Source: Collimonas sp. OK242 (lineage in GTDB: Bacteria; Pseudomonadota; Gammaproteobacteria; Burkholderiales; Burkholderiaceae_D). From it: a DNA stretch of 64,000 nt. Where the stretch lies: the NCBI RefSeq assembly GCF_900107095.1, contig NZ_FNOR01000005.1, positions 124,001 through 188,000 of the forward strand, in the 5' to 3' direction. Positions 24,772 to 46,260 of the stretch are shown one piece after another; position 1 is the stretch's first letter, and each line of letters opens with the position of its first letter. The translations under genes were made by a program, and so were the position numbers. The notes beneath the pieces were generated by a model. It was not told the DNA's origin. It saw nothing but the letters and a program-made list of their open reading frames with translations, and did not search any database.

Positions 24772-24819
24772 TGGTGGTGATAGGTGGACTTGAACCACCG
24801 ACCCCAGCATTATGAGTGC
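24772..24819 (-). repeat. attL: 48-bp copy of the tRNA-Met 3' half
   Basis: These 48 bases are identical to 46213-46260, the part of the tRNA-Met gene from the anticodon stem to the encoded CCA end. The 5' half of a tRNA is absent here, so this is the left attachment-site remnant and not a functional tRNA gene. Confidence 0.95.
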
Positions 24820-24890
24820 AAGAATATGCTTCCACCCATGTTTCCTGCTGTTTTAAAAGTCTAATAAAATCAGCTACTTAGGTGATAGTT

Positions 24891-24943
24891 GTCCACTGTT
24901 GGCCATGCTGGTACACTGCCGAATAAGTCCACAAAAAGGCCAC
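24891..24943 (+). promoter_or_regulatory. Two arm-site-like repeats before the integrase gene
   Basis: GTCCAC-N4-GGCCA (24891-24905) and GTCCAC-N5-GGCCAC (24927-24943) lie 36 bases apart between attL and the integrase start. A 19-base copy with two differences recurs at 46125-46143 near the other end. Such repeats flanking both att cores are what is expected of integrase arm-binding sites; this is inference. Confidence 0.45.
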
Positions 24944-24952
24944 GGCGATCAC

Positions 24953-26287
24953 ATGAAAGCCTATATCACCCGAGACCTCCTGCGCGATACTAAGCCGGGC
25001 GGCAAAGTCATGGATATTGCCGACACCGTCGTCAAAGGCTTTATTGTCCGGGTGACACTCGGCGGCGCCATGGTATATGGCATTCGGTATACTACCGGAT
25101 CGGGAGTACAAGTCCGCTATTCCCTGAATAAATCCTTTCCGACAACAAGCGTCAGCGACGCCCGCGAAGAAGCGCGTATTCTGTTAGGCAAGGTCGCCGC
25201 CGGTGAAAACCCCGCCCAAGAAAAGAAAGCCAAAGCGGTCGGCAGGCTCACCCTAGGGGCATTTATTGACGGTGATTACGGCAACCATCTGCAAAGCAAG
25301 ACGAAAACCGCCGACGCGACCATTCTTCGCCTGAAAAAGTGCTTTGCCAAATTCCTCGGCACGGCGCTGCAAGACATAGATTCCCTTGCTATTGAGCGAT
25401 GGCGTGCGGCCAGGATCAAAGCCGGCATCAGCGCCTCCACGGTCAACCGCGACATCGGCGCGCTCAAACCGCTGTTTTCGCGTGCGGTCGAATGGAAAAA
25501 ACTACAAGAAAATCCACTAAAGCGGTTTAAGCCGCTCGGCAGCGATACGGACCCGATTGTCCGGTTTTTGTCGGCGGAAGAAGAGACTCGGCTTCGCGTC
25601 GCGTTGGACAAGCGCGAAATGCGGGATCGGGCGGGCCGCGCTCGGGCAAACTTGTGGCGGTCGGCCAGGCGCTATGATCTGCTGCCGGAACTGGCACCGT
25701 CGCATTTTGTTGATTATCTGCAACCAGCCATCCTACTCTCTATTAATACGGGCATTCGACAAGGAGAGCTGATCAATTTGTTGTGGAAAGATATTGATCT
25801 GGGGCAGGATGCCAGCTTGTTTATCCCTGGGAAGATCGCCAAAAGCGGTAAGGGCCGGCATGTTCCGCTGAACGACGAAGCCAAGGCTGTGTTACTTCGC
25901 TGGAAAGCGCAACGGGGCGCAAATGAAATCGTATTTCCGGGCCGGGATGGCAATCGCATCGCCGAAGTCAAAACCGCCTGGCGCAAATTGTTGCGCGACG
26001 CCGCGATTGAAAACTTTCGCTGGCACGACATGCGCCATCACTTTGCAAGCCATCTGGTGATGCTCGGGATTGATCTGAACACCGTGCGTGAACTGCTGGG
26101 CCACGCCGACTTGAAAATGACCTTACGGTATGCGCATCTTGCACCGGCACACAAAATGAGCGCGGTGCAAAAACTAATGGGTAGGATGTCGTCGACTGAG
26201 AAAATCACGCCTACCCAGGGGATGACGGATCACGAAACCATGGCGCCAATGTCAAATTTGACGTCATTGAAGGCTGCTGAAAAATAA
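24953..26287 (+). CDS. Tyrosine-family site-specific integrase (P4-like)
   Basis: The 444-residue protein has an N-terminal DUF4102-like arm-binding domain (MKAYITRDLLRDTKPGGKVMD, SLNKSFPTTSVSDAREEA), a core-binding SAM-like domain and a catalytic domain. Catalytic residues visible are Arg in NTGIRQGEL (about 269), Lys in KIAKSGKG, His and Arg in WHDMRHHFAS (about 358/361), His in GHADLKMT (384) and Tyr in RYAHL (about 393). I choose the ATG at 24953; an upstream TTG at 24899 falls in the arm-repeat region. It lies next to attL, and the 48-bp core in the tRNA explains its target choice. Confidence 0.95.
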   Translation: MKAYITRDLLRDTKPGGKVMDIADTVVKGFIVRVTLGGAMVYGIRYTTGSGVQVRYSLNKSFPTTSVSDAREEARILLGKVAAGENPAQEKKAKAVGRLTLGAFIDGDYGNHLQSKTKTADATILRLKKCFAKFLGTALQDIDSLAIERWRAARIKAGISASTVNRDIGALKPLFSRAVEWKKLQENPLKRFKPLGSDTDPIVRFLSAEEETRLRVALDKREMRDRAGRARANLWRSARRYDLLPELAPSHFVDYLQPAILLSINTGIRQGELINLLWKDIDLGQDASLFIPGKIAKSGKGRHVPLNDEAKAVLLRWKAQRGANEIVFPGRDGNRIAEVKTAWRKLLRDAAIENFRWHDMRHHFASHLVMLGIDLNTVRELLGHADLKMTLRYAHLAPAHKMSAVQKLMGRMSSTEKITPTQGMTDHETMAPMSNLTSLKAAEK

Positions 26288-26379
26288 ACAGTTTGATGCA
26301 CGATTTCGTCGACAGTGCGACATGCTGCCTGCTTTTCCCTACTAGTACCAACTTGGATAAATACGCCTAAGGAGCGCGA

Positions 26380-27180
26380 ATGAGATTGATTTTACCTAGC
26401 AATCGTAAGTATCTTTCCGTGCTGGAAACCATTGACTTGTTGGCAGAACAAACTGCTATTTTTGCTTTCAAGCAAAGTGATGATTCTTATATTTCGGCCA
26501 GTATGAGGGAGGATGGTTGGGTGCAAGATATTAAAGGAACCTGGTCGCACCGACCCGATGTGCCGCGCGCTGCCAGGGAAAAGCACCATCTAGACATTCT
26601 GCGCGAAAAACAAAAAAAACACTGGACGAGTGCCATCCGCAGCGCCGTGGTAGTGGGGAGGTTGGTTGTACGTGATGCTGCGGGGCTTGAGAGTGAGGCA
26701 GAGGACGATATATTGAATTTGTTCATTAAAACAAAAGAAATTTCTGCCTGGCTGTCGGGTCCCGATTCCCGCTATTTCATCGTGTTTGACAAAAAACCGG
26801 TCGTGACGGAAGCCGAGTCCCCCGTGCAACGCGTGCAGGAACTGGAACGGGTTGAACCCGATGATGATCCGGCGACCGAACCGAAGTCTGCGCCGCAGGT
26901 CGGCCGCACAACAACGCACAAGCTCAACGAAAAAGAACGCCGAGTACTCGACGCCGAAATCGAGATAGCCAAGTCACGAGCATTAAACCCTAGCGACTAC
27001 CATAGCGTCTGGGCTGAAATTGTAAAAATGGCGTCCGCAAAAGAAGGGTGTTTTATTGAATATAGCCATTCGTTGAATGCGGCAAAATACAGGAGCGGAA
27101 ACGGGGTGGGCACCTTTACTAAAGCCAACCTGAAAGACCGCATGAAACGTGAGGCCGCACGGCGCCAAAGGGCGAAATAG
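26380..27180 (+). CDS. Hypothetical island protein
   Basis: The 266-residue protein has GGAG 5 bases before its ATG. The N-terminal half looks folded (LPSNRKYLSVLETIDLLAEQ, DGWVQDIKGTW), a middle acidic/Pro segment is linker-like, and the C-terminal 90 residues are highly charged and basic at the end (RMKREAARRQRAK). The pattern LNEKERRVLDAEIEIAKSRAL suggests a helical hairpin. Similar proteins occur near integrases of islands, but I do not recognise a function. The last 20 bases overlap the 10-bp phased repeat array. Confidence 0.7.
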   Translation: MRLILPSNRKYLSVLETIDLLAEQTAIFAFKQSDDSYISASMREDGWVQDIKGTWSHRPDVPRAAREKHHLDILREKQKKHWTSAIRSAVVVGRLVVRDAAGLESEAEDDILNLFIKTKEISAWLSGPDSRYFIVFDKKPVVTEAESPVQRVQELERVEPDDDPATEPKSAPQVGRTTTHKLNEKERRVLDAEIEIAKSRALNPSDYHSVWAEIVKMASAKEGCFIEYSHSLNAAKYRSGNGVGTFTKANLKDRMKREAARRQRAK

Positions 27181-27314: not shown

Positions 27315-27722
27315 ATGAAAAAGGCAGCTTCGACGGTCGACGAGTTTTGTTTTGCTAACGGCCGCCTCTCCAAATCATTTTTCTACAAACTCGTTAAAAG
27401 TGGCCAAGGCCCGAAAATTCTCAAGGTCGGTAACCGCACGCTGATTACAGATGAAGCAGGTGCCGAATGGCGCGCAGAAATGCAAATGCGTACTGATATG
27501 GCGACCCTGGAATTTATCAAAGCCAATGAGTCCAAGCTGATCCATACGTTGGTGTTCGGCAAACCGGACCTGGTGGACCGCGAATGCCTGTCGCCGACCG
27601 ACCGGGAGTTGCTGGAAAAAGTAGAAGCCAAAAACGCGCTCTTGATCGCCAGGGATTCCACCTGCCAAGAGCGCATAACAGCGCTGATCGAGTATAAACG
27701 CCTGCTGACCGGGGGCGTGTAA
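27315..27722 (+). CDS. AlpA/excisionase-like HTH protein
   Basis: The first 55 of 135 residues (TVDEFCFANGRLSKSFFYKLVKSG through KVGNRTLITDEAG) match the winged-helix excisionase/AlpA pattern: a short helix-turn-helix and then a basic strand that reads a DNA groove. The C-terminal half is helical with no known domain. AAGGA lies before the ATG. In P4-type elements and phage-inducible islands such proteins control excision and early gene expression. It heads a tight chain of overlapping genes up to 29287. Confidence 0.72.
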   Translation: MKKAASTVDEFCFANGRLSKSFFYKLVKSGQGPKILKVGNRTLITDEAGAEWRAEMQMRTDMATLEFIKANESKLIHTLVFGKPDLVDRECLSPTDRELLEKVEAKNALLIARDSTCQERITALIEYKRLLTGGV

Positions 27723-28081
27723 TGAAAAACCATCAACTCCCCCTGATTGACGCGTTGTGCGTTGATAGCGTCAAGGATTCTGGCCCGTCACGTCCCGCAC
27801 ATAAATTTGTTGGCACGGTCAACCCGACGCACTGGACAGCATTGCTTGCGTTGCTGCGCAACGCGTTGCCTTCCGATCAATTTTCCCGCATCGGTCATCC
27901 CACCAGCGGAACAGATTTTGCCGAAGAATTGCGCCAGCTCGGGCTTGAACTGCCAACCGTTCAAGTACCTATCGTCAGCGGTAATGACGATGTTGTTCAT
28001 GGCGAAGTGTACGCGCTGACAGTTGCTGACGTGCGTCGCATCAACCGCTGGTTTGCAAAGACCGGAGGCGTATATGCCTAG
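27722..28081 (+). CDS. Small phage-type hypothetical protein
   Basis: The start overlaps the previous stop as TAATG. The 119-residue product has a helical middle (HWTALLALLRNALPSDQFSRI) and a C-terminal region VYALTVADVRRINRWFAKTGGVYA. I do not recognise a family. Co-translation with the HTH gene and the next two genes places it in the island's early or replication module. Confidence 0.7.
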   Translation: MKNHQLPLIDALCVDSVKDSGPSRPAHKFVGTVNPTHWTALLALLRNALPSDQFSRIGHPTSGTDFAEELRQLGLELPTVQVPIVSGNDDVVHGEVYALTVADVRRINRWFAKTGGVYA

Positions 28082-28355
28082 CCCTACTTATCCAATGCCG
28101 AACACGCTGGCTGCGCGGCTCTTGACGGCAATGCTAAATAACGACATGCACCGTCATCCTGAGTTCGTTCAATCAGTCGGCCCCACGAAACTGGCCGCCG
28201 CTGTCAAAGAACTCAGGAGCCTTGGCTGGTCAGTTGAAATGTTCGAGGTGCATGCGCCAATTGAAGAAGACCCGCATCGACATGTCGCGTTCTATTACCT
28301 CGCGGATGCCGAACATACGCTGCGCGCAGCATTCGGTTCCGAGGAGGGCTTGTAA
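28074..28355 (+). CDS. Small phage-type hypothetical protein
   Basis: The 93-residue product starts at an ATG inside the previous gene's last codons (8-base overlap). It includes TLAARLLTAMLNNDMHRHPEF and an amphipathic AAAVKELRSLGWSVEMFEV segment. No known domain is recognised. An upstream extension of the frame is possible but lacks a ribosome-binding site. Confidence 0.65.
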   Translation: MPSPTYPMPNTLAARLLTAMLNNDMHRHPEFVQSVGPTKLAAAVKELRSLGWSVEMFEVHAPIEEDPHRHVAFYYLADAEHTLRAAFGSEEGL

Positions 28356-29287
28356 TGGTCAAGCGTACTCAAACCACAAGCGCATCTTCCGCTGACGAAG
28401 CCAAGTCGGGACCGCTTTATCGTGCTGGCACGTTAAAGCGCGACCGCCGCACCAACGAACAGCTAGAGCAGCTTGATCAGCAAATTATTGACGTGTTGAA
28501 AGATGATCACCCGCAGTCTGTACGACACGTTTTTTACCGCATGACCGATCCGCGCTTACCCGAGCCGGTCGAGAAGTCCGACCGTGGCTATCGTCACGTT
28601 CAGGACCGCTGCGTCAAGCTGCGGCGCTCGGGTCGCGTGCGGTATGACTGGATTGCGGATATGTCTCGGCGCGGTTACTTCGTCACTACTTTTTCAGGAA
28701 AAGGAGATTTTCTGTCCCGTATGGCCGGGTTGTATCGTTCTGACTTGTGGGCGCTGTCGGATTATCGCTGTGAGGTGTGGTGTGAAAGCCGGAGCATTGC
28801 CAGCGTTATACAAAAGGACTGCACTGAACTGGCAGTTGATTTGTACCCATGTGGCGGCTTCTCTAGCCTGTCATTCGTCCATGAAGCGGCAGAAGCGCAC
28901 AACTATTCCGACGATGGTCGCCCACTGATTATTTTCTATATTGGTGACTATGACCCGGCAGGCGTAATTATCGACGTTGCGCTTGAGCGCGAATTGCGTT
29001 TACACCTGAAGCCATCGATTAAATTACATTTTCAACGCATCGGCATCAACGAGGATCAGATTGCGTTATATGACCTACCGACCAAACCCCGAAAGGAGTC
29101 CGACACGCGCTCGCTCCAAGTTGCCTCCACTGTCGAAGCCGAAGCGATGCCAGCACGTATTCTTCGTGCCTTGCTGCGCCAACAAATAGAGGAACTGTTG
29201 CCCGAGGGCGCATTGGCATCGGCGAAGGTCGCAGAGGAATCCGAGCGCGCTGGCCTGCGCATGTTGGCGGGTACTTTCGGTGAGTAA
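28355..29287 (+). CDS. Spo11/TopoVI-A-like TOPRIM protein (candidate Topo mini-A)
   Basis: The 310-residue protein has the two-domain layout of the Spo11/topoisomerase VI A family. A winged-helix domain (about 36-110) contains SVRHVFYRM, matching the R-x-I/V-F/Y-Y pattern around the catalytic tyrosine (Tyr61 here) and the family segment YRHVQDRCVKLRRSGRV. A TOPRIM domain follows, with Glu144 in WCESRSIASV and the DxD pair in YIGDYDPAG (Asp198/Asp200). The C-terminal VEAEAMPARILRALL also fits TopoVI-A. No B subunit (GHKL ATPase) gene is present nearby. It would nick or cleave DNA in the element's replication or recombination. Function is inferred from motifs only. Confidence 0.72.
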   Translation: MVKRTQTTSASSADEAKSGPLYRAGTLKRDRRTNEQLEQLDQQIIDVLKDDHPQSVRHVFYRMTDPRLPEPVEKSDRGYRHVQDRCVKLRRSGRVRYDWIADMSRRGYFVTTFSGKGDFLSRMAGLYRSDLWALSDYRCEVWCESRSIASVIQKDCTELAVDLYPCGGFSSLSFVHEAAEAHNYSDDGRPLIIFYIGDYDPAGVIIDVALERELRLHLKPSIKLHFQRIGINEDQIALYDLPTKPRKESDTRSLQVASTVEAEAMPARILRALLRQQIEELLPEGALASAKVAEESERAGLRMLAGTFGE

Positions 29288-29298: not shown

Positions 29299-29490
29299 GT
29301 GCCCAGCACGTTAAACCTTCGACCTTGCCCATTCTGCGGCGGATCGGCCACGCTCGCTCCAATGCGGAATGCACAGGAATGGTGGCGTGTACGCTGCAAC
29401 AATTACCACTGCGGCGTCACCCCCTGGGCGATGCCGGATGCAGAACAAGCCGTCAACGCCTGGAATCGGAGGCCAGATGACGAAGCATAA
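29299..29490 (+). CDS. Lar-family restriction-alleviation-like zinc protein
   Basis: This 63-residue GTG-initiated protein has the Lar-type pattern CPFCGG near the start, a second Cys pair in RCNNYHCG and the typical ending AVNAWNRR. Lar of the Rac prophage protects DNA from type I restriction by modulating the methylase. Here an intact type I system is on the same island, which makes the pairing notable. The first start codon after an upstream stop is GTG, with only a weak ribosome-binding site. Confidence 0.75.
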   Translation: MPSTLNLRPCPFCGGSATLAPMRNAQEWWRVRCNNYHCGVTPWAMPDAEQAVNAWNRRPDDEA

Positions 29491-29996
29491 CCATGTAAAG
29501 GGAGCGCTTCCTTTTCATTTTGTGGCGATCCCGATGGATGTTATCCGCTCCGCTGCGTGGCAGTCGTTACCACCTAATGCGGTAGTGCTGGCCATCGCTC
29601 TGATGGGCCAATATACCGGCAAGAATAACGGCCGGCTTTGTCCTGCGTTTGTCGTTATGGAACGTTGCGGATGGACCTCGAAGAGAACGCTTATCAATGC
29701 TAAACGCGCACTGCTTGAATGCCCGTTCGTTGTACTCACGCGAAAAGGCCATCCCCCCCCGGACCGCTGAGTGGCTGGCGTTTACGTGGTGGCCGCTACA
29801 TTACGAGAAGTCGATGGATATTGACCCAAAGACATTCCCGTACTTGAATTTCTCCGAACTAAAGAGAATCGATCCCAACGACGGACGCGGAAACCCGCCG
29901 GATAAATTAATTCCTGTGGTGCAGAAACGGAACCAATACCCTGAAAAAAAGGTGCCAGGAGGTGCAGAAAATGCACCACAAGACGCCACAGCATAG
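29477..29996 (+). pseudogene. Replication-type winged-helix gene, frameshifted at a C8 run
   Basis: From ATG 29477 (GGAGG upstream) the protein reads PFHFVAIPMDVIRSAAWQSL and then a helix-turn-helix region (AFVVMERCGWTSKRTLINAK), like small phage or satellite replication/regulatory proteins. The frame leaves at eight C residues (29753-29760) and stops at 29770. With seven C it would continue RTAEWLAFTWWPLHYEKSMD to 29996, giving 172 residues. The continuation is plainly coding, so this is a single-base indel: a true mutation, a slipping tract or a sequencing error. The 3' end carries palindromic iterons. Confidence 0.72.
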
Positions 29997-30070
29997 CGCC
30001 TATCGGTACAGAAACTGCACCACTGTTCATAGTGCAGTGCCATTTTGTTCATCGGTACAGTTTCTGCACC
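29918..30070 (+). repeat. Palindromic iterons GGTRCAG-N3-CTGCACC
   Basis: Three 17-base near-palindromes occur at 29961-29977, 30005-30021 and 30054-30070, with a weaker fourth at 29918-29934. Starts are 43, 44 and 49 bases apart. The first two lie inside the 3' coding end of the frameshifted replication-type gene and the others downstream of it. This layout suggests an origin or operator bound by that protein. The remainder of 29997-30357 shows no gene. Confidence 0.6.
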
Positions 30071-30357
30071 AGTTATAGAGTTTGCCATCTGTGGACTTGT
30101 TTATCGTTCGCATCTGACCACATGGTTCAGGAAACGTGGCTGATGATTTCGGCACTATCCTGGATCGGGAACACGTTTTTACTCATCGGCGTCGCACACC
30201 CGGCGCCTTTCCCATAGAAAGTAAGAACACCCGGATTCTGCGCCACCAAAAATGATAAATTGTTGGGCGCGACCGGAACCAGCATGCGACCGCTTGTTGC
30301 AGGCACCACCGCGTAGACGACCGCCATCCACCTTAGCTAGAAAGAGAGTTCACAGCA

Positions 30358-31398
30358 ATGTTCAACATCCTCATCGACACCAGCGTGTGGCTCGACCTTG
30401 CCGAGGACCCGAAGCAGACGCCGTTACTCAATTTGCTCGTAGAGCTGCTGTCGGGTGGGTTCATGAACATCCTTGTGCCTCGCATCGTGATCAACGAGTT
30501 TCAGAAGAACCGCAACCGGGTCGCGAAATCGAGCGCAAAGAGCCTTTCAACGCACTTCAACCTCGTCAAGGACGCCATACGCAAAGCTGATGGCGACAAG
30601 AGGCAGAAAGACAAGGTATTGGGCTACCTGTCCGAAGTGGATCACCGCATCCCAATCCTGGGTGGTGCAGCCGAGGGCACATTAGCTCGGATCGACAATA
30701 TCCTCGCTGCCGCAACGGTCATCGAAGCGAGCGACGAGATCAAGGTTCGAGCCGCTGACCGTGCGCTGCATCGGAAGGCACCTTGCCACCATGAGAACAA
30801 AAACTCAATGGCTGATGCGGTGCTGATCGAGACCTACTTCGAGTGCGTCAGGACGATGGGGGGCGCGGGCCAAAGGTTTGCGTTTGTCACGCACAACAAG
30901 CACGACTTCAGCCTCATCAACGGCAACCAGAAGCTGCCGCACGCTGACTTTGCTAGTTCGTTCTCGAAGATCAAGTCGATGTATTTTATCAACCTTGCCG
31001 AGTGCCTACGACGTATCGACCCGATGCGTGTCACTTACGCAATGTGGGAACAGGAATGGGAGCAAGAGCCTAGGAGCCTCTCCGAGATGCTCAATGCAAT
31101 GGATCGGTTGGCAACACAGGTTTGGTACAACCGACACAAGTACCTCGCTTGGCAGGTTGAAAAGGGCAAGCACAAGATCGTCAGCCGCGAGGAATGGGAC
31201 AAGGGAAAGCTGAGCGGTCAAACCCACACCGTCGAGGATATTTGGGAGGGTGCGCTCAGGGGAGCCAAGAAGGCGGAGAGGACGCTTGGCAAAGGCAACT
31301 ACGGCCCTTGGACTGATTTCGAGTGGGGAATGATCAACGGGAAGCTGTCTGCCCTCCGCTGGATGCTTGGTGAAGACTGGGACGAACTGTACACGTAG
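30358..31398 (+). CDS. PIN-domain (DUF4935-like) putative ribonuclease
   Basis: The N-terminal 190 of 346 residues form a PIN-type nuclease domain with four acidic positions in order: Asp7 in ILIDTSVWLDL, Glu47 in RIVINEFQKN, Asp153 in SMADAVLIETYF and Asp183 in FVTHNKHDFSL. The C-terminal 150 residues are charged and helical with several Trp (WEQEWEQEP, RWMLGEDWDEL). This length and layout differ from VapC toxins, and no antitoxin-like gene is adjacent. It stands alone between the iterons and terminators, so a single-gene defence or RNase role is plausible but unproven. Confidence 0.75.
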   Translation: MFNILIDTSVWLDLAEDPKQTPLLNLLVELLSGGFMNILVPRIVINEFQKNRNRVAKSSAKSLSTHFNLVKDAIRKADGDKRQKDKVLGYLSEVDHRIPILGGAAEGTLARIDNILAAATVIEASDEIKVRAADRALHRKAPCHHENKNSMADAVLIETYFECVRTMGGAGQRFAFVTHNKHDFSLINGNQKLPHADFASSFSKIKSMYFINLAECLRRIDPMRVTYAMWEQEWEQEPRSLSEMLNAMDRLATQVWYNRHKYLAWQVEKGKHKIVSREEWDKGKLSGQTHTVEDIWEGALRGAKKAERTLGKGNYGPWTDFEWGMINGKLSALRWMLGEDWDELYT

Positions 31399-32248: not shown

Positions 32249-32292
32249 CCCACACCTCTCACCTTTGGAGAGCTGTGGGTGGCTGTTTTTTT
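32249..32292 (+). terminator. Hairpin with T-run before the small terminase gene
   Basis: CCCACA/TGTGGG and CTCTC/GAGAG form a two-part stem with one C.C mismatch, followed after six bases by seven T. It ends about 68 bases before the terminase start. It may be a terminator for an upstream small transcript or part of a packaging signal. Confidence 0.5.
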
Positions 32293-32359
32293 CAGTACCG
32301 GAAAACGGTTCACCAAAAGCTATGCAGTAAAAGCAGCACGAAATTTTAAGGAGTGCATT

Positions 32360-32926
32360 ATGAAAAATAACCTAAACCATGGCGAACTCAATAGCCGGCA
32401 GCTTCGATTCATCGACGAGTACCTGATTGATCTCAACGCGACGCAAGCCGCAATTCGGGCCGGATACTCCAAGAAAACAGCGGCAGAGCAAGGCTTTGCG
32501 TTGTTAAGAAAACCTCAGATACAGCAGGCGATCCAGGTCCGGCAGAAGGAACTGGCGAACAAAGCCGGCGTCACACGCGAACGCATCGTCAGTGAGTTGG
32601 CCAAGATAGCCTTTTGCGACATGCGTAAACTGTTCAATGGCGATGGCAGCATGAAGCTGGTGGCCGACCTTGACGACGACACTGCTGGTGCGTTGGCGAG
32701 CGTGGAGACGGCTGAAATCAAAGCCACAGGCGAACCTGGACAGCCGCAAAACTTCACCAAAAAAATTCGATTGTGGGACAAGCTGGGCGCACTGGAAAAA
32801 CTGATCAAGCACCTGGGACTGGAAGATGTCGCCAAGCCTGAGCTGGAAGCAACGACCGAAGCTCTGGACGATAGCTTCGACAAACTGCGCGAAGCATTCA
32901 GGAAGCGGCTGGCACAAGTTGACTAA
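32360..32926 (+). CDS. Phage terminase small subunit
   Basis: The 188-residue protein matches the Terminase_2 family. Its DNA-binding N-terminus reads LNSRQLRFIDEYLIDLNATQ then AAIRAGYSKKTAAEQG, and a helical region with GVTRERIVSELAKIAFCDMR follows. AAGGAG lies 6 bases before the ATG. Small subunits recognise the packaging site and recruit the large ATPase/nuclease. No large subunit, portal or capsid gene follows. A stand-alone terS is a hallmark of phage satellites that redirect a helper's packaging machinery. Confidence 0.9.
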   Translation: MKNNLNHGELNSRQLRFIDEYLIDLNATQAAIRAGYSKKTAAEQGFALLRKPQIQQAIQVRQKELANKAGVTRERIVSELAKIAFCDMRKLFNGDGSMKLVADLDDDTAGALASVETAEIKATGEPGQPQNFTKKIRLWDKLGALEKLIKHLGLEDVAKPELEATTEALDDSFDKLREAFRKRLAQVD

Positions 32927-35452: not shown

Positions 35453-35462
35453 GACCGTCTCC

Positions 35463-38218: not shown

Positions 38219-38315
38219 AACACCTCCTGTAAGAACGCAATGATTTCCCAGCCATCGCAAGCGCTGCCAACGGTTGCCGAAGAGCGACATAGCTGCTGAT
38301 TCAGCCACGGATAAG

Positions 38316-39053
38316 TTAATAATCCCAACTTTCATGCGCCAGCAATCCAGAATTTAGCTCATCCCGATGTAGCCGCCAACTCGGCATATTGGCATCCATC
38401 AAGCCCGTAAAACGATCATTGTGGTGTCGCTCCAGCAAGTGCGTCAGTTCATGAACGACGATGTACTCCAGGCACTGTACCGGCTTCTTGGCAAGTTCAA
38501 GGTTCAACCAGATGCGTTGGGCATTCGTGTTGCAACTACCCCACTTGGTCTTCATCTTCTTGATGCCCCAGGCCGCCGCCTGCACACCAATAATCGGTTG
38601 CCATTTCTCCAGCAGCGGTGGAATTATGTTTTTTAACTGCTCGCGATACCAACGCAACAAAACCTCTTCGCGTTGCTCCGCGCTGGCGTCGAGGCGCACT
38701 TGGAGGTCGATAATCGCTTTGTTACGCATGACGACCTTGCCTGCGCCTTGGTGATCAGTGATGCGAAGGCGATAGCGTTGCCCGAGAAAATAGTGGCTCT
38801 CGCCGCTGACCATTTCGCGTTGGGACTGACGCGGCTGGGCATCAAACTTTGCCCGTTGACGTTTGATCCACCCCAGCTTGCCGATCACCGCCAGCCGTAC
38901 CGCATCGTTGCTAACTGCCAATGGTGCAGCCACTCGGACCCGCCCTTGGGGTGGATAGACACCCAAGTGCAGGTTCTTGATGTCCTTGCGCACCACCTCC
39001 ACGGCCAAGCCGTTGATCGTGATCTGGTGCTTTTCTGTTCCTTTAATAATCAT
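38316..39053 (-). CDS. YgjP-type (DUF45) metallopeptidase of the hsd operon
   Basis: The 245-residue protein has HELTHLLERHHNDRF (HExxH with a further His) preceded by WGSCNTNAQRIWLNLELAK. These are the two family signatures. The ATG lies inside the hsdR 3' end (11-base overlap), so it is translated with the restriction subunit. DUF45 proteins are often found behind type I hsdR genes; their substrate is unknown. Cytoplasmic, no signal peptide. It is distinct in sequence from the core-genome member at 1956-2933. Confidence 0.9.
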   Translation of the reverse strand: MIIKGTEKHQITINGLAVEVVRKDIKNLHLGVYPPQGRVRVAAPLAVSNDAVRLAVIGKLGWIKRQRAKFDAQPRQSQREMVSGESHYFLGQRYRLRITDHQGAGKVVMRNKAIIDLQVRLDASAEQREEVLLRWYREQLKNIIPPLLEKWQPIIGVQAAAWGIKKMKTKWGSCNTNAQRIWLNLELAKKPVQCLEYIVVHELTHLLERHHNDRFTGLMDANMPSWRLHRDELNSGLLAHESWDY

Positions 39054-42000
39054 GCTGATTTTTCACCAACTCCAGAATGTCATTGGTAAGTTGTTCGTCG
39101 TCTTTTAGCACCGCCCTAATTGCAAATTTAACCGTTTTGATCTTGTTCGCGTTGCTGCGCCAATCATCCTGCGCTTTCAGCCGCACCGCATGGTCAACCG
39201 CCAGCGCCAGCGCTTCATCCTTGCCGAGGTTGTCATACAGCGCCCGCTTGGCAGCGTTATCCAAGGTCGCGGGGTAAGTCGCGCCCGTCGCCGGATTTTT
39301 CACCTGCTTGGCCAATGCCACAATCTCCGCCAGATACTGCTCGTAATCGAGCGCGTTCTGCTTGCGCTTCTCGATCAACGCATCCAGCAGTTCCGACATT
39401 TTCTCGTAGTACATCGGATTGATCGGCTGCTCGTCGATGATCAACTTGCGCACGTTGTTCTCGATGGTTTCCGCTACCGCCTCTTTGTTCTCGCGAATGC
39501 CCTTGGGCAGCGCACCTACCGCATCGGCGCCGCGCTCAACGATGAGCTGGATCAGCGACATATCATCAAAGGCCGAAATCTTCTCACTCTCCTCGGCCCG
39601 AATGTAGGTGTCGATCAGGTGACGCATGGCCGGCTCATACATCTTCAGGTCGATGTAGTCGCCGCTGGCCAGTTTCACCTCATTGCGGGCCTTCTCGAAA
39701 TGATCGGCTTCCGCCTTGATGGCGTCGATCTCCGCTAACGTATAGCCTGCCTGTTCCATTTCATTGGCCAGATTGGCAAAGGCACGGATGAATCCGGCGG
39801 TGAACTTGTACAAGGCCAGTCGCTTCGGCTCGTTTTCCTTGAGCTGTGCCGCGTTGCCCGAGTCAATGGCGCAAAAGTAACGCAGATAGGCCGCCGTATC
39901 CTGAGGCGCATCGACCGGCTCGCACAGCGCCTTGATCGCTTCCCGTGCTTCCTCCAGATGCTCGCGTGCCTTGCCCAGCCGGTCTTGTAGCAGGCCCGCC
40001 ACGTCGCTCTTGTCATAGCCATCGAGTGCGCCAGCGGTGTAATCGTGGATCGACGTCGCCAGGCTCTTGAACAAGTCCTTGTAGTCGATGATGTAGCCGT
40101 ATTCCTTGTCCTCTCCATCTAGCCGGTTGACCCGGCAGATGGCCTGGAACAAACCGTGATCGCGCATCTGCTTGTCGATGTAGAGATAGGTGGCCGAGGG
40201 CGCATCGAAGCCGGTCAGCAGCTTGTCCACCACGATCAGCAGCTTCATCTGTCCCGGTTCGTCGATGAATTTTTTCTTGACCGCTTTCTCGAACGCTTCC
40301 GGCTCCTGGCCACCCAGCATCTTGTTGTAAATGCCGTATTGCCGCAGTTTCTCGGTCAGCCCCTCGCCGGATTCCTCGCCCTTGATGTCGGCTGCTGATG
40401 GCCTGTAGCTGGTCACGATGGCGCATTTGCCCGCCAGATCAGTCTTGTCGAACAGTTCATAGAATTTGCATGCCTGGTAAATGCTGCCCGACACCAGCAT
40501 CGCATTGCCGTAGCCGCTCTTGAGCCTGTCGCGAGTTTCCATGTCCATCAGGATATCGGCCACGATCTTCTCCAGGCGCGACTGGGAGGACAGCACCCGC
40601 TGCATGGTTCCCCATTTCTGCTTGAGCTGCGCACGCGCCAGATCGGTCAGGCCCTTGGTCTTGGCCTCGAACCACTGGTCGATTTTCTTTTGCGAGGTAA
40701 TATTCTGGTCAATATCACGTGCCTCATAGCGCAAATCCAGCACCACGCCATCGCGCACCGCCTCATCGAACTTGTAAGTGTGGATGTAGTCGCCAAATAT
40801 TTCGATACTTTTCTGCTTATCAACCTTGAGCAGTGGCGTGCCGGTGAATCCGATGAACAGCGCACTGGGCAGGATCGCCATCATCGCCTTGTGTAACTCG
40901 CCGGACTGGGTGCGATGGCACTCATCCACAAACACGGTCAGGTCGCCCTTGGCCAGAAAGCCGGTCGGCAGTGCCTTTTTCATGTCAGCGATGTACTTGG
41001 CAATATCGGCAGCGCTGCCGCCCGCGTCTTCGTCTTCCTTGCCGCCGAATTTGTGGATCAGCGAACACATTAGCCAGGGCTTGCTGGTATTCAGCGTGGC
41101 GATCAGGTCGGCGCCGCTGCTGGTGCGGTAAATATCTTCGTTAACGCCCTTGAATACTTTTTCGATCTGCTCATCGAGTTCGGTGCGGTCGGTGATGATC
41201 AGCACTCGGGCATCCGGTCGGTTCTCGCGTAGCCACTTGGCCAGCCACACCATCGTCAGGCTTTTGCCCGATCCCTGCGTATGCCAGATGATGCCGCCCT
41301 CGCGCCGCTGCACATGCTGCTGTGCGGCGCGCACGCCGAAATACTGGTTCTGGCGGCACAGCTTCTTGGTACCGGCGTCGAATACGATGAAATCGTGGAT
41401 CAGCTCCAGCAAACGCGGCTTGCAGCACACCTGCGTCAGGTGTCGGTCAAGCAGGTTCTCGATGGGACTTTCTTCCTTCCATGTCAGGTAATACTTCTCT
41501 GGCGTCTGGATACTGCCGTAACGCATGCCCTCGGTATCATTGCCGGCCATTACCAACTGCATCGTGGAGAAAAAGTGCTGAATGAAGACGGGCTTCTGGT
41601 TATCCAGATTCTGGCGTATCCCCTCGGCCACCGACACGGTTGAGCGCTTGAGTTCCAGGACGGCCAGCGCGATGCCGTTCACATACAGCACCACGTCCGG
41701 GCGCTTGTCATATCCCTTGATATTGGCCGAGGCGTCCGCTGCCTTGATGGCAACTTCTTCCGCGATGCCAAAATGATTATTGAGTGGATGTTTCCAGTCG
41801 ATCAGCCAGACGGTCTGAGTGTTTTCACCTACTTCTGGTTTCACCTTTACGCCATAGCGTAGCAGCTCATAGACTGCCTTGTTGCGGTCGTAGATGGTTT
41901 TGCTGGTATCACCGGCAGCCTTGTCGAGAATATGCCGTGCCCGGCTGATTAGCGCAGCATCAACGCCTTGCTTTTCCAAAAAGGTATCCAGCAAGTCCGT

Positions 42001-42123
42001 GTCGATATTGCGGTTGTCGACGCGGTCGATCCAGCTGCCTAGATAGTCGTAGCCCAGCGTGTCGCGGAACAGTTTGATCACCCGTTCCTGGGTTTTTTTC
42101 TCAATTTGGCCGACCATACTCAT
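39043..42123 (-). CDS. hsdR: Type I restriction enzyme R subunit (HsdR)
   Basis: The 1026-residue motor/nuclease subunit has an N-terminal PD-ExK nuclease region (RPDVVLYVNGIALAVLELKR). Superfamily 2 helicase motifs follow: WHTQGSGKSLTMVWLAKWL (Walker A), VFVDECHRTQSG (DEAH-like), LFIGFTGTPL and AICRVNRLDG. It translocates and cuts unmethylated DNA in complex with HsdM and HsdS. The start overlaps the hsdS stop as ATGA. The subunit is intact with no frameshift. Confidence 0.96.
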   Translation of the reverse strand: MSMVGQIEKKTQERVIKLFRDTLGYDYLGSWIDRVDNRNIDTDLLDTFLEKQGVDAALISRARHILDKAAGDTSKTIYDRNKAVYELLRYGVKVKPEVGENTQTVWLIDWKHPLNNHFGIAEEVAIKAADASANIKGYDKRPDVVLYVNGIALAVLELKRSTVSVAEGIRQNLDNQKPVFIQHFFSTMQLVMAGNDTEGMRYGSIQTPEKYYLTWKEESPIENLLDRHLTQVCCKPRLLELIHDFIVFDAGTKKLCRQNQYFGVRAAQQHVQRREGGIIWHTQGSGKSLTMVWLAKWLRENRPDARVLIITDRTELDEQIEKVFKGVNEDIYRTSSGADLIATLNTSKPWLMCSLIHKFGGKEDEDAGGSAADIAKYIADMKKALPTGFLAKGDLTVFVDECHRTQSGELHKAMMAILPSALFIGFTGTPLLKVDKQKSIEIFGDYIHTYKFDEAVRDGVVLDLRYEARDIDQNITSQKKIDQWFEAKTKGLTDLARAQLKQKWGTMQRVLSSQSRLEKIVADILMDMETRDRLKSGYGNAMLVSGSIYQACKFYELFDKTDLAGKCAIVTSYRPSAADIKGEESGEGLTEKLRQYGIYNKMLGGQEPEAFEKAVKKKFIDEPGQMKLLIVVDKLLTGFDAPSATYLYIDKQMRDHGLFQAICRVNRLDGEDKEYGYIIDYKDLFKSLATSIHDYTAGALDGYDKSDVAGLLQDRLGKAREHLEEAREAIKALCEPVDAPQDTAAYLRYFCAIDSGNAAQLKENEPKRLALYKFTAGFIRAFANLANEMEQAGYTLAEIDAIKAEADHFEKARNEVKLASGDYIDLKMYEPAMRHLIDTYIRAEESEKISAFDDMSLIQLIVERGADAVGALPKGIRENKEAVAETIENNVRKLIIDEQPINPMYYEKMSELLDALIEKRKQNALDYEQYLAEIVALAKQVKNPATGATYPATLDNAAKRALYDNLGKDEALALAVDHAVRLKAQDDWRSNANKIKTVKFAIRAVLKDDEQLTNDILELVKNQHDY

Positions 42124-43370
42124 ATCAAACGAATCCTTCCAGTTAGGAGATTCTGCATCATGCCCTGCTTGAGGGCGCGGGTCTTATCGTGGCGGTTTTC
42201 GAGAGCGGCAAGTTCAGCGTCCATGTCGGAGATCACCGTGGCGATGGCAATTTGTTCAGGCAGCGGTGGAAGAGTTAATTCAATCGCAGAAAGTACACCC
42301 TTGCTAAGCGAAGGTAATGCCGTTGTACTCACTAAATTCCCCAGGTTCGTGTTAAGTAGCACGTAATGAATGAAGCGACTATAGGCACGACCGGCATCCA
42401 ATACGAACGCCGCCATGTTGTTATCCAAGCAGCTTGCTTTAATAAGAATTTTCTTTCGTTCCAAAAATACAGCGGCACCGACTTTGGCAAATACGATACT
42501 TTCAGCGGGAAAGGCTGTTGCACCAAGCTGCTTTCGCAATGCTTCGCTGATGTAATTATTTGCAGTGTCCATGAAAATTTCGTTACCCACATGGTTCATG
42601 TCAGAAACCTTGAAGAGTGGATATGTCCCTACCGTCGCCCCTTGGACCTTGGTTGGGAACCCGCTGCCACCGCGGAACTGGCCGATGTCGCCGGCTTTAA
42701 CCCGCTTCCACTCCCCGCTAAACCCCGGCAGACGGGTCTGGCCGGTGAGAAGTTGTTGCATGGCGGCTTGTTTGAGGTCGCGCTTCTTGGCGATGAGTTG
42801 GTCCAGCCCGCTGATCAGGGCATCCACATCGGACAAGGCGGCTGCGATTGCCTGTTGCTCGGGGAGAGAAGGAAGCGGGACCTGATATGCTTTCAACCAA
42901 GGGTATTCAATACTCTCTACAGTCGTACCTGACTTCAAACAAGTTGCCAATATTCGCTGCCCACTACCGACAAGAACGTGAAGCAAGTAATCCGAGTCAA
43001 CCTTTACGCCAGGAATCACTGCCTTGATATCCTGATTGATGGCAATCGGCTTGGTGTTCTTTGATACAGGCAGATACCTTCTTAGGATTCCGCTCCGGGT
43101 TACGATCAAGACACTGTTTGGAGGTAGAAGTGTAGTACTTGATTGTTTCACAGCAGCTTCAGTGATTTTCATTGGAGTATCTGAAATCAACACGGACTTG
43201 ATATCACCAGATGATGCCCATGGCACGTTTCCGTTAGACCAGAACATCGGATTTTGCATAGAAGGGGTAGCACCTCCTTTCCAAGTACCAAGTTCATCTA
43301 GTCGCTTAGCATCCCAATCCACCGGAATCATCCCCGCTCCGGTATGCTTGTATCCCGCCTTCATCTCCAT
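42120..43370 (-). CDS. hsdS: Type I restriction-modification specificity subunit (HsdS)
   Basis: The 416-residue protein has two target-recognition domains, each followed by a conserved helical spacer. The first spacer is PLPSLPEQQAIAAALSDVDA with KKRDLKQAAMQQLLTGQTRL (about residues 165-215). The second is LPPLPEQIAIATVISDMDAE with ALKQGMMQNLLTGRIRL at the C-terminus. It sets the bipartite recognition sequence. Its start overlaps the hsdM end by 10 bases. The target site cannot be read from sequence. Confidence 0.95.
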   Translation of the reverse strand: MEMKAGYKHTGAGMIPVDWDAKRLDELGTWKGGATPSMQNPMFWSNGNVPWASSGDIKSVLISDTPMKITEAAVKQSSTTLLPPNSVLIVTRSGILRRYLPVSKNTKPIAINQDIKAVIPGVKVDSDYLLHVLVGSGQRILATCLKSGTTVESIEYPWLKAYQVPLPSLPEQQAIAAALSDVDALISGLDQLIAKKRDLKQAAMQQLLTGQTRLPGFSGEWKRVKAGDIGQFRGGSGFPTKVQGATVGTYPLFKVSDMNHVGNEIFMDTANNYISEALRKQLGATAFPAESIVFAKVGAAVFLERKKILIKASCLDNNMAAFVLDAGRAYSRFIHYVLLNTNLGNLVSTTALPSLSKGVLSAIELTLPPLPEQIAIATVISDMDAELAALENRHDKTRALKQGMMQNLLTGRIRLI

Positions 43371-45751
43371 GCCGCACCCATCTTCTTCAGATGCGCATTC
43401 ACACGGGCCGTCAAGACTTGTACTTCGTCGACGAGTTGAGGTAATGGCGTTGCGTAGCGGTCCGCTAATTCTTTGACCCGTCCAGTGAGCGCCTGCGAGA
43501 CGCGATCCAGTTCGGTCTGTACGTCAAAGGCGAGTGTGGCCAGCCATTTGTCCTCCACCACTAACGTCTTGATATCGGTCTCGGACAGCTTGGCGTACTG
43601 CGCGAATACCTTGGCGTCCAGCGCCTTCTGCGCGTCTTTGAGTTTTCTATTGCCGATGGCTTCCTGTTCGATCAGCTCAAGATAGTCGTTCAGCAGCTTG
43701 CGTTCGTCAACAGCGTCACGGTCGTTCTTAATCTCGCCCAGTCGTACCTTGGCGCTGGCCTTGGTTAACCTGCCCTTGTCGTTCCTGGCCTCTGCCAATA
43801 GACCGTCTTCGCCACTGTGTTCCTCGTCCAGTTCTTCCATTTGACGGCTGACGGCGTCGCGCTCGGCCTCATACTGATCAATGGCCTTTGCCTCGGTTGA
43901 AAAATAGCGGCGAATGATAAATCGCTGCGGGATGAGATCGGTGTTGGGTTTTCCATCCACGACTGCATTCCAGCCATCGTGTGCCACCATATAGATATCG
44001 TCCTGCATCGATTCTGCCCAATAACTCATGATGTGCTGATACACATCGTAGGCGTCCAGCAGCTTTGCTTGCTTGAAGGTGTCGAGCAGGCTTTCAGACA
44101 GCGTCTCGATCAGCGCCTTTGGGTGGCCACCGAGGGTGATGCCCATCAGTTCCGGCGTGTTAGCCGCCTTCCACTGCGCAAAAAGGACGCTGATCGACTG
44201 GTTGAATCTGGAGAATTCGGCATGGCCGAAGATGGACATCTTGATGTCGCTGGCCGCTACCTTACGCTGGCTATAACCTGGTCGATCTGCCGGAGAAAAC
44301 AACGTTGCGCGCACGCCAGGGAACACTTCCCAGTAGCGGGACAGGTCGTCAATGTCGCGGTTCGGTATGCCGCCTTGCAGATGGGCCGCGATGTCTTGCA
44401 GGTCTTCGGAGTCAGTGCTGTCGATGTAACGCGGGATGTTGAGGTTGTAGTCGTTGGTCTCGATCTCTGCCACAGGCACCAGGCGCGCATACTTGGGCGT
44501 TGCCACCTGCTTGTTGAAGGTATCCACGATCTTATGTATGTCCTGCGCGCGCAGGCGGTTCTTGTTGCCGTCCTTGATGTAGCCTTTGCTGGCGTCAATC
44601 ATAAAGATGCCCTTGCGAGCGGCGGCGTTTTCCTTGTCCAGCACGATGATGCAGGCGGGGATGCTGGTGCCATAGAACAGGTTGGCCGGCAAGCCGATGA
44701 TTCCTTTGATGTAACCGCGCTGGATAATGCGCTTGCGAATGCCACCTTCGGCACCGCCCCGGAACAGCACGCCGTGCGGCAGGATCACTGCGCCCTTGCC
44801 GGTTGTTTTTAGCGAGGCCAAGATGTGTAGCAGAAACGCATAATCGCCGTTCTTGTCGGGCGGAATACCATGTGCAAAGCGGTGGAATTCGTCTTCTGAC
44901 GGATTGAACCCATTGCTCCAGGCTTTGGTGGAGAACGGGGGATTGGCGACCACGAAGTCGAACGTCTTGAGACTACCGTCGGCCTGTTTAAAATGCGGAT
45001 TGGACAGCGTATTGTCTTTCCAGATTTCCGCCGTAGGGCAATCGTGCAGGATCATGTTCATTTTCGCCAGCGCAGCGGTTGCGTTGTCCATTTCCTGTCC
45101 ATAGATGGTGATGTCCAGCCCAGTGGTACTGCGAGCTTCATCATGGGCTTTTAGCAGCAGCGATGCCGAGCCGCACGTAGGGTCATGCAGGGTTTGGTTG
45201 GCACTGGTAGCACTGCCGATACCGATTACCTTGGCCATAACGCGCGAGACTTCCGCCGGGGTGTAGAACTGCCCTTTGCTCTTACCCGATTCAGTGGCGA
45301 AGTGGCGCATCAGGTATTCATAGGCGTCGCCGAGAATATCGTCGCCCTCGGCGCGATTACCCTTGAAATCCAGTCCGGGTGTATTGAAGATGGACACCAG
45401 ATTGGACAGGCGGTCAACCATCTCTTTGCCCTTGCCCAGTTTCTCGGCATCGTTGAAGTCGGCAACGTCGATCACGCCCTTTAGATCGTTGGCCTCGGCC
45501 AGCTTACCGATGATCTTGTTGATCTTGTCGCCGATTTCCTTGTCACCCTTGAGCGCGACCATATCGGCGAAGCTGCCACCGGTGGGTACATCGATCAGTG
45601 CATCCTTTTGACCGGCGTATTTGTCGGAAATGTATTTGACGAACAGCAGGACCAGAACGTAATCCTTATACTGGGAAGCATCCATGCCGCCGCGCAGTTC
45701 GTCGCAGCTTTTCCAGAGGGAGTTATAGAGTTCGGATTTCTTAATTGCCAT
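43361..45751 (-). CDS. hsdM: Type I restriction-modification N6-adenine methylase (HsdM)
   Basis: The 796-residue protein has an HsdM N-terminal helical domain (MAIKKSELYNSLWKSCDELR), the cofactor motif DPTCGSASLLLKA, catalytic NPPF in FVVANPPFSTKAW, and KGQFYTPAEVSRVMA. A long C-terminal extension with coiled-coil-like stretches makes it larger than the roughly 500-residue EcoKI/EcoR124 type. The ATG at 45751 fits the family start, although the frame is open 16 codons upstream. It is the first gene of the hsdM-hsdS-hsdR-YgjP-like-GGCT-like operon. Confidence 0.95.
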   Translation of the reverse strand: MAIKKSELYNSLWKSCDELRGGMDASQYKDYVLVLLFVKYISDKYAGQKDALIDVPTGGSFADMVALKGDKEIGDKINKIIGKLAEANDLKGVIDVADFNDAEKLGKGKEMVDRLSNLVSIFNTPGLDFKGNRAEGDDILGDAYEYLMRHFATESGKSKGQFYTPAEVSRVMAKVIGIGSATSANQTLHDPTCGSASLLLKAHDEARSTTGLDITIYGQEMDNATAALAKMNMILHDCPTAEIWKDNTLSNPHFKQADGSLKTFDFVVANPPFSTKAWSNGFNPSEDEFHRFAHGIPPDKNGDYAFLLHILASLKTTGKGAVILPHGVLFRGGAEGGIRKRIIQRGYIKGIIGLPANLFYGTSIPACIIVLDKENAAARKGIFMIDASKGYIKDGNKNRLRAQDIHKIVDTFNKQVATPKYARLVPVAEIETNDYNLNIPRYIDSTDSEDLQDIAAHLQGGIPNRDIDDLSRYWEVFPGVRATLFSPADRPGYSQRKVAASDIKMSIFGHAEFSRFNQSISVLFAQWKAANTPELMGITLGGHPKALIETLSESLLDTFKQAKLLDAYDVYQHIMSYWAESMQDDIYMVAHDGWNAVVDGKPNTDLIPQRFIIRRYFSTEAKAIDQYEAERDAVSRQMEELDEEHSGEDGLLAEARNDKGRLTKASAKVRLGEIKNDRDAVDERKLLNDYLELIEQEAIGNRKLKDAQKALDAKVFAQYAKLSETDIKTLVVEDKWLATLAFDVQTELDRVSQALTGRVKELADRYATPLPQLVDEVQVLTARVNAHLKKMGAAWR

Positions 45752-46124
45752 GAATGAGGTTACTTTATTGTGAATACGTACTAGGGGTGCGCGGGCCAAT
45801 GCATGGGCTAGTGCGTCGAGCAGATGTGTGACCGTGTTCGTGCGACAGTCGTCGCCATGAATTTACCAGAACGCTGGCCACCACTGTCCGCGTATCGGCG
45901 CACCGCTTATGTGCTGTCGGTTGAATGGTTTGCTTGAGGTCTTCGATCATGCAGGAGGTGATTACAGTCGGGATTTGATGAGATGTCATCTTATCTTATG
46001 CGTCGCACTGCCGAGATGGAATGTTGTAGTGCGGCCTGGACAAGGGCGGCGATGGGTGGATGTGCAAGTGCGCTCGCACGCAGTCAGGAAGGAGTGCCGG
46101 AAATCGACGGCCCGCTTGCCAAAA
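45752..46124. other. Gap at the island's right end, no gene seen
   Basis: Upstream region of hsdM and right end of the island. Only short, unsupported frames occur on either strand. It must hold the hsdM promoter, but I see no clear -35/-10 pair. Confidence 0.5.
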
Positions 46125-46143
46125 AAGTCCACAGGAAGGCCAC
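46125..46143 (+). promoter_or_regulatory. Right-end arm-site-like repeat
   Basis: The 19 bases AAGTCCACAGGAAGGCCAC differ from 24925-24943 at two positions and have the same orientation. It lies 70 bases inside the right att core. It is a candidate integrase arm-binding site. Confidence 0.45.
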
Positions 46144-46148
46144 AAACG

Positions 46149-46181
46149 AAAAAACCGACTGATTAGAGTCGGCCTTTTTTA
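46149..46181 (-). terminator. Island-borne terminator now serving tRNA-Met
   Basis: CCGACT-GATTAG-AGTCGG with T-runs on both sides forms a bidirectional terminator 32 bases beyond the tRNA 3' end. It belongs to the island side of attR, so the tRNA now uses a terminator brought in by the element. Confidence 0.8.
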
Positions 46182-46212
46182 TCGTAAGTGATTGATTAAT
46201 ATCACTAAATTC

Positions 46213-46260
46213 TGGTGGTGATAGGTGGACTTGAACCACCGACCCCAGCATTATGAGTGC
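46213..46260 (-). repeat. attR: 48-bp att core inside tRNA-Met
   Basis: Perfect copy of 24772-24819. It covers the tRNA from the anticodon stem to the CCA end, so insertion left the gene intact at this end. Confidence 0.95.

What the first reader, a model, noticed from the sequence alone, without database searches (positions are those of the whole stretch)
24772..46260. Satellite-like island (PICI-type gene set) carrying a type I restriction operon
Seen: an att-flanked element with integrase, AlpA/excisionase-like HTH, small overlapping early genes, a replication-type winged-helix gene with iterons, and a small terminase subunit, without large terminase, portal, capsid or tail genes. Established: phage-inducible chromosomal islands typically have int, alpA, a replication gene and terS, and use a helper's capsid. 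Inference: this is such a satellite, or a decayed one, enlarged by a defence module (hsdMSR, DUF45, GGCT-like) and several unknown genes. At 21.4 kb it is larger than typical Gram-negative satellites.
Basis: partly seen in the sequence, partly recalled or inferred. Interest (0 to 1): 0.72.

Follow-up and report, generated by a model that had tools for sequence, protein, structure and literature searches.

The report
Decayed phage-satellite island with restriction cargo
A 21.5 kb piece of foreign DNA sits in a tRNA gene and looks like an old virus-parasite that needs other phages to move, now loaded with a DNA-cutting defence system; several of its relatives share an unusual topoisomerase-like gene.

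Summary
The element is real. A 48-bp exact repeat (24772-24819 / 46213-46260) is the 3' end of tRNA-Met, and in 11 of 12 same-genus genomes compared the flanks meet at an uninterrupted tRNA. Mini-A leads to 73 loci; 12 are bounded by 42-59 bp repeats in tRNA genes and are 5.0-11.1 kb long. They differ in packaging genes: full head set, capsid plus TerS, capsid-like only, TerS only (closest to this window), or none recognised; one tail-fibre-like gene was seen. I read the island as a TerS-only satellite of that lineage, enlarged by an intact-looking type I R-M operon. It is probably not mobile by itself: the rep frame is broken, and no PF04860 portal or phrog_2/phrog_9 large terminase was found in the host genome. 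At 21.5 kb it misses the published PICI size criterion, so it is PICI-like, not a PICI. Mini-A also occurs beside genes of apparently complete phages.

The parts
24772..24819 (+). attL, 48-bp copy of the tRNA-Met 3' end
   Evidence: exact repeat with 46213-46260
24899..26287 (+). tyrosine integrase
   Evidence: PF00589 6.2e-29, phrog_1 6.3e-64
26380..27180 (+). unknown 266-aa early gene
   Evidence: no reliable family hit; no tblastn match in 74 loci at E 1e-3
27315..27722 (+). AlpA/excisionase-like HTH (weak)
   Evidence: HTH_17 E 0.061, Phage_AlpA E 0.21, below cut-off; 47% to an L003 protein over 60 aa
27722..28081 (+). unknown 119-aa gene
   Evidence: no family hit
28023..28355 (+). small gene upstream of Mini-A; true start uncertain
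   Evidence: HTH_39 E 0.0092, below cut-off
28355..29287 (+). Mini-A type Top6A/Spo11-like protein (Toprim)
   Evidence: phrog_6247 2.1e-38; 24.8% to phage NP1, E 7e-18; profile hit to TopoVI-A 1d3y E 0.011; Y61, E144, D200 invariant in 50 rows
29369..29770 (+). Rep-like gene, first part; frame broken
   Evidence: matches 26 of 74 loci, 49% to L012
29649..29996 (+). continuation of the same Rep-like gene in another frame (piece)
   Evidence: matches the following part of the L011/L012/L018 Rep
29917..30071 (.). iteron-like repeats, four copies (last inverted), candidate origin
   Evidence: spacings 43, 44, 55
30358..31398 (+). PIN-domain protein
   Evidence: PF16289 2.6e-23
32279..32926 (+). 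small terminase subunit (true start uncertain; an ATG lies further in)
   Evidence: PF03592 4.5e-37, phrog_51 8.7e-35
33714..34628 (-). unknown cargo; a distant homologue lies at the right end of the L048 element
   Evidence: 21.9% over 306 columns, E 1.9e-10
34892..35476 (-). serine resolvase
   Evidence: PF00239 2.1e-35
37700..38335 (-). ChaC-like gamma-glutamylcyclotransferase
   Evidence: PF04752 1.3e-25
38316..39053 (-). YgjP-like metallopeptidase
   Evidence: PF01863 1.2e-63
39043..42123 (-). HsdR
   Evidence: PDLC03044, residues 1-1023 on profile 1-1030/1034
42120..43370 (-). HsdS
   Evidence: PDLC03098 5.4e-83, profile 13-438/443
43361..45799 (-). HsdM
   Evidence: PDLC03027, profile 1-810/810
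46213..46260 (+). attR, inside the tRNA-Met gene
46213..46289 (-). tRNA-Met (CAT), integration target

Best explanation
The island descends from a phage satellite of a lineage whose usual core is integrase, small HTH protein, Mini-A protein and a replication gene. It integrated once into the 3' end of tRNA-Met (shown). In its active state it would have excised with Int and the HTH protein, replicated from the iterons with Rep helped by Mini-A, and used its own TerS so that a helper phage's large terminase and particles packaged it (inferred). It brought or later gained a type I R-M operon that would protect the host from unmodified phages (operon intact by sequence; activity inferred). The broken rep frame suggests that the present copy is decayed or only passively mobile (break shown in this assembly; consequence inferred). 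For Mini-A I favour a role in DNA replication or processing, making or resolving breaks, because it is often coupled to a replication gene (inferred; I did not search for a Top6B-type partner).
For: Single insertion with empty sites in 11 of 12 genomes. Twelve att-bounded kin in tRNA genes of eight amino acids (L061 and L062 share site and layout). L037 (Ottowia, 10.9 kb): capsid, protease, portal, HNH, TerS, TerL and adaptor identified, leaving no room for a full tail module. L039 (Nitrosomonas, 8.1 kb, also tRNA-Met): int, small genes, Mini-A, Rep, TerS, no head gene recognised. A gene of the same Rep cluster starts within 150 bp after Mini-A in 29 of 74 rows, the window included; in others the next gene is a primase, helicase or primosomal gene. 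Iterons at rep gene ends of kin with 33/33/44-45 bp spacing. R-M subunits nearly full length.
Against: Likeness to kin rests mainly on Mini-A (up to 77%), Rep (49%) and a short HTH stretch (47%); Int is about 31% to its best match, and TerS matches only L024, L026 and L056. AlpA is below cut-off here, and the small HTH-position genes of L008, L039 and L048 had no Pfam match at E 1. The island is larger than all 12 bounded kin. Relatives of Mini-A also stand beside TerL or portal genes of apparently complete phages (L024, L025, L047, L055). One bounded kin, L035, has a tail-fibre-like gene. No helper and no mobility data.
Confidence: 0.7

Rival explanations
1. Remnant of a complete prophage: structural and lysis genes were deleted and replaced by cargo.
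For: Mini-A relatives stand beside TerL or portal genes in L024, L025, L047, L055; TerS relatives occur in 229 phage records.
Against: In the starred 24-row Mini-A clade that holds the window, the four members with long att repeats at both ends, L032, L035, L037 and L039, are 8.1-10.9 kb tRNA elements. The only tail-type hit in them is the tail-fibre-like gene of L035, but the tail test is incomplete.
Confidence: 0.17
2. A generic integrative defence island that picked up phage-type genes and was never packaged.
For: HsdR relatives occur in 11 of 195 family genomes, our own included, while of 148 relatives only our own had a strong Mini-A match (one weak match, G063). rep is broken.
Against: Int, HTH-position gene, Mini-A, Rep and TerS stand in the order seen in L039.
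Confidence: 0.1
3. Composite (compatible with the main reading): a satellite of about 8.2 kb plus a separately gained resolvase/R-M block.
For: After TerS (32926) no gene was recognised until 33714; then come opposite-strand cargo and a resolvase whose region is 80% identical to one in G008; bounded kin are 11.1 kb or shorter.
Against: No internal att copy; GC of the two halves is equal, 0.534 and 0.535.
Confidence: 0.4

Closest known systems
Gram-negative PICIs (PMC6092414; passages read)
   Same: integrase, replication gene, HTH-type regulator position, TerS, no structural genes recognised, att repeats
   Different: 21.5 kb instead of 12-15 kb; AlpA below cut-off; rep broken; carries Mini-A; no helper known
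capsid-forming PICIs (passages of PMC13230959 and PMC11389934; original paper recalled only)
   Same: kin such as L037 carry capsid, portal, protease, adaptor, HNH and terminases
   Different: the window has none of the head genes; I did not compare kin with published cfPICI sequences
Mini-A proteins (Pseudomonas phage NP1 named as example in PMC7614492, passages read; primary paper not held)
   Same: Toprim protein of Top6A type; match to NP1 at 24.8%
   Different: the kin loci are 47-77% identical, whereas 50,697 phage records gave 70 matches, none at 60% or more, and the 40 listed were 23-28%
Type I R-M operon
   Same: HsdM, HsdS, HsdR nearly full length, one strand, overlapping
   Different: followed by ygjP and chaC, and carried in a satellite-type island

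Membership tests
Gram-negative PICI | integrase, replication module and master regulator in conserved organisation (PMC6092414) | tested here: inconclusive
   Int clear; rep-like gene present but frame broken; AlpA E 0.21, below cut-off
Gram-negative PICI | att site never occupied by prophages | not tested
   only same-genus sites were compared
Gram-negative PICI | no phage structural or lytic genes | tested here: met
   none among 20 chosen ORFs (Pfam) and 10 ORFs (PHROGs); not every ORF was scanned
Gram-negative PICI | size typically around 12-15 kb | tested here: not met
   21,489 bp including both att copies
Gram-negative PICI | induction and packaging by a helper phage | not testable with these tools
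   needs experiment; no phrog_2 or phrog_9 TerL and no PF04860 portal in the own genome
capsid-forming PICI | own capsid, portal, protease, adaptor, terminases | tested here: not met
   of these only TerS was found; kin L037 has the set
Mini-A / Top6A-like | Toprim domain with E and DxD | tested here: met
   E144 and D200 invariant, D198 nearly invariant in 50 rows; DxD aligned with 1d3y; PF21180 Toprim itself reached only E 0.045, in 2 of 50 rows
Mini-A / Top6A-like | catalytic tyrosine in an upstream winged-helix domain (recalled) | tested here: inconclusive
   Y61 invariant, but Foldseek gave no PDB match at E 0.001 or better
Mini-A / Top6A-like | DNA cleavage activity | not testable with these tools
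   biochemistry needed
Type I restriction-modification | HsdM, HsdS, HsdR complete | tested here: met

The most novel reading that the evidence does not exclude
Satellites with a Mini-A core are a lineage of their own, spread mainly over Pseudomonadota, in which a Spo11/Top6A-type nuclease works with the replication module while the packaging module is exchanged freely (full head, capsid plus TerS, TerS only). The window is a TerS-only member that became a defence carrier.
Probability: 0.4. Interest if true: 0.72.

Novelty: new variant of a known kind. Interest (0 to 1): 0.5.

Why it matters
If Mini-A marks a satellite lineage, it gives a search handle for satellites in Beta-, Alpha- and Gammaproteobacteria that capsid- or AlpA-based searches could miss, and a setting in which the unknown role of Mini-A can be tested by gene deletion. 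The lineage would also show packaging modules changing while the replication core stays, which bears on how PICI-like and capsid-forming satellites arise from each other.

Tried and rejected
Complete-prophage reading of the left block: kept as a rival, not the main reading, because of the short bounded kin. Tandem insertion at one att: no third att copy. L038 as a second satellite with R-M cargo: its tRNA-Ala 3' end occurs only once in that genome, so no bounded element is shown. L025 as a bounded element: only one copy of its tRNA-Ser 3' end in the 53.7 kb record. Structure of the 33714-34628 protein: model useless, pLDDT 31.8, so my proteasome-like impression is unproven. The AF2 Mini-A model (pLDDT 81) gave no significant PDB match; the related hits were weak T7 primase chains. 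Plasmid relatives of 31400-38300: only the resolvase stretch in the 20 rows listed. Head-gene states on the Mini-A tree: 9 changes, not more clustered than shuffled labels (as low in 87 of 200); the states were set by hand for 26 of 50 rows, some on contigs cut before the end of the head genes. Iteron counts (four or more copies in 20 of 33 kin rep genes) had no shuffle control. Gene maps of kin come from my own greedy ORF caller, not from curated annotation. The 73 loci hold near-copies across collections (L013 and L037 have identical Mini-A; L020/L051 and L026/L056 have the same gene maps). The Mini-A alignment and tree use 49 of the 73 loci plus the window. The tail test is incomplete: one search scanned 131 element ORFs but shows only the 25 commonest of 113 families (none tail); one tail-fibre-like gene was found (L035). 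aragorn inside my scripts printed nothing; tRNA statements rest. Literature: no paper linking Mini-A and phage satellites was noticed in searches. I saw listings for all of them and passages of six papers; the seven papers that hold both 'phage satellite' and 'topoisomerase' were not opened, and the primary Mini-A and cfPICI papers were not read.
Full report
What is there. The island runs from 24772 to 46260. Its ends are a 48-bp exact repeat, and the right copy is the 3' end of a tRNA-Met(CAT) gene at 46213-46289 on the minus strand. A scan for further copies inside found nothing better than 24 mismatches of 48. The genus set holds 15 genomes including our own. I fetched the site from 12 of the 14 others. 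In 11 of these 12, about 75 bases left of attL plus the att sequence run straight into the tRNA gene and miaA; G002 lacks the left stretch. A single net insertion of about 21.4 kb is therefore shown. The neighbourhood is also used by other DNA: in G008 about 22 kb lie between the left-hand gene and the terminator.

Genes of the left block. Int is a tyrosine recombinase. The 135-aa protein at 27315 has an HTH of the AlpA/HTH_17 kind, but below Pfam cut-offs. In the same call the small proteins at this position in L004, L005, L033 and L037 passed a cut-off of one of the two families, those of L003 and L035 were weak, and those of L008, L039 and L048 gave nothing. The 310-aa protein at 28355 is the key gene: phrog_6247 'DNA topoisomerase' at 2.1e-38. 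In the phage collection it matches 70 of 50,697 records, none at 60% identity or more, among them Pseudomonas phage NP1 at 24.8%. NP1 is the phage shown as the Mini-A example in a review (PMC7614492, passages read). A profile of 50 sequences hits one PDB sequence at E up to 1, the A subunit of topoisomerase VI (1d3y, E 0.011), over the Toprim DxD stretch. Y61, E144 and D200 are invariant and D198 nearly so in the 50 rows. The Pfam Top6A Toprim model is reached only at E 0.045, by 2 of 50 rows. The AF2 model has pLDDT 81, but Foldseek finds no PDB match at E 0.001 or better. The assignment therefore rests on sequence.

The replication gene. The two pieces at 29369-29770 and 29649-29996 lie in different frames and match successive parts of one 220-aa protein in L011/L012. 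The gene is broken in this assembly; a sequencing error cannot be excluded. Its end carries four iteron-like repeats, spacing 43, 44 and 55. Kin show such repeats at the same place, with spacings of 33, 33 and 44-45 in L004, L008, L017, L026 and L056. No shuffle control was made.

Kin through Mini-A. The gene was found in 29 viral contigs and 44 genome contigs; a few of these are near-copies of each other. It is rare: 2 of 399 genomes of the order have it at E up to 1e-40, our own included. Of the 44 genome loci, 12 (L032, L035, L037, L039, L048, L058, L060, L061, L062, L068, L070, L073) are bounded by 42-59 bp repeats that overlap a tRNA gene: Asn three times, Met and Leu twice, Val, Lys, Cys, Gln and Pro once. 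They are 5.0 to 11.1 kb long. Two use tRNA-Met, as the window does (L035, L039). Other loci had shorter or no repeats, often because the contig ends.

Packaging grades. L037 has major head protein, protease, portal, HNH, TerS, TerL and head-tail adaptor, the set that PMC13230959 lists for an element classed as a capsid-forming PICI. L060, L061, L062 and L068 carry genes of the same capsid and TerL clusters; I did not scan each member, and the portal candidate of L068 had no PHROG hit. L035 and L048 have a capsid or capsid-like gene plus a TerS, with no TerL seen (TerS of L035 by cluster with L048). L058 and L070 have a capsid or capsid-like gene and no TerL seen. L039 has TerS alone. No head gene was recognised in L032 beyond one weak hit at E 0.0096. 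L073 was not examined gene by gene. On the Mini-A tree these grades do not cluster more than shuffled labels do: L008 and L035 have nearly the same Mini-A but different packaging genes. This suggests exchange of packaging modules on a lasting core.

Counter-evidence. Mini-A relatives also stand beside TerL or portal genes of what look like complete phages in L024, L025, L047 and L055, so Mini-A alone does not prove a satellite. The window's Int is only about 31% identical to its best match among 74 loci, and its TerS matches only L024, L026 and L056. L056 has Int, Mini-A, Rep and a TerS-like gene without a recognised head gene, but no att pair was found. L035 carries a tail-fibre-like gene, and the tail test is incomplete, because one search lists only 25 of 113 families.

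Cargo. HsdM, HsdS and HsdR match their PADLOC profiles almost end to end and are followed on the same strand by ygjP and chaC. HsdR relatives at E up to 1e-200 occur in 11 of 195 family genomes, our own included, so the enzyme occurs apart from the satellite. A serine resolvase, a PIN-domain gene and several unknown genes complete the island.

Helper. No PF04860 portal and no large terminase of phrog_2 or phrog_9 was found in the host genome, so no resident helper of those kinds is visible. Three of 15 genus genomes carry phrog_9 matches, each with in-frame stops.

How it most likely worked. Shown: one net insertion in tRNA-Met, the gene set, conserved candidate active-site residues, a break in rep, an intact-looking R-M operon. 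Inferred: excision by Int with the HTH protein; replication from the iterons; Mini-A acting in replication or DNA processing, because a gene of the same Rep cluster follows within 150 bp in 29 of 74 rows (window included) and primase, helicase or primosomal genes follow in others, although in five rows the next gene is the capsid gene; packaging by a helper through TerS; and protection of the host by restriction. The present copy is likely unable to replicate alone.

Comparison. Against the four published PICI screening criteria (PMC6092414, passages read): gene organisation inconclusive, absence of structural genes met in the ORFs scanned, site never used by prophages not tested, size not met. 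I therefore call it a PICI-like, satellite-derived island. I noticed no paper that links Mini-A with phage satellites (searches; listings and passages only), but the library lacks the primary Mini-A paper, and I did not read the primary cfPICI paper.

Noticed in passing
L035:14001-15317: A satellite-type element in Nitrosospira multiformis carries a 438-aa protein with a C-terminal match to phage tail-fibre families (phrog_5616, phrog_31) between its capsid gene and its TerS gene; a tail-fibre-like gene in an element without a recognised tail module is odd.
   Followed up: partly
33714-34628 (-) and L048:15420-16277 (-): A shared unknown cargo protein (22-26% identical) at the right side of two elements of this lineage; its N-terminus reminded me of proteasome-type hydrolases (recalled), but the PDB hit was insignificant and the model failed.
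   Followed up: partly
G008:C32, about 71075-93561 (L116/L117): Another member of the genus has about 22 kb of extra DNA just left of the same tRNA-Met terminator, with a resolvase region 80% identical to W34853-35636; the site looks like an insertion hot spot.
   Followed up: partly
L038:14828-17985: In a Nitrosospira MAG an hsdR-like gene (matching window HsdR only from residue 271 on) and a ygjP gene directly follow the capsid-protease-portal genes of a Mini-A element, where other kin have HNH, TerS and TerL.
   Followed up: partly
L024, L025, L047, L055: Mini-A homologues beside phage-type TerL or portal genes, probably in complete temperate phages; possible source or sink of the satellite gene.
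   Followed up: partly
30358-31398: PIN-domain protein (PF16289) between rep and TerS, with no tblastn match in 74 kin loci; could be a toxin or defence gene.
   Followed up: no
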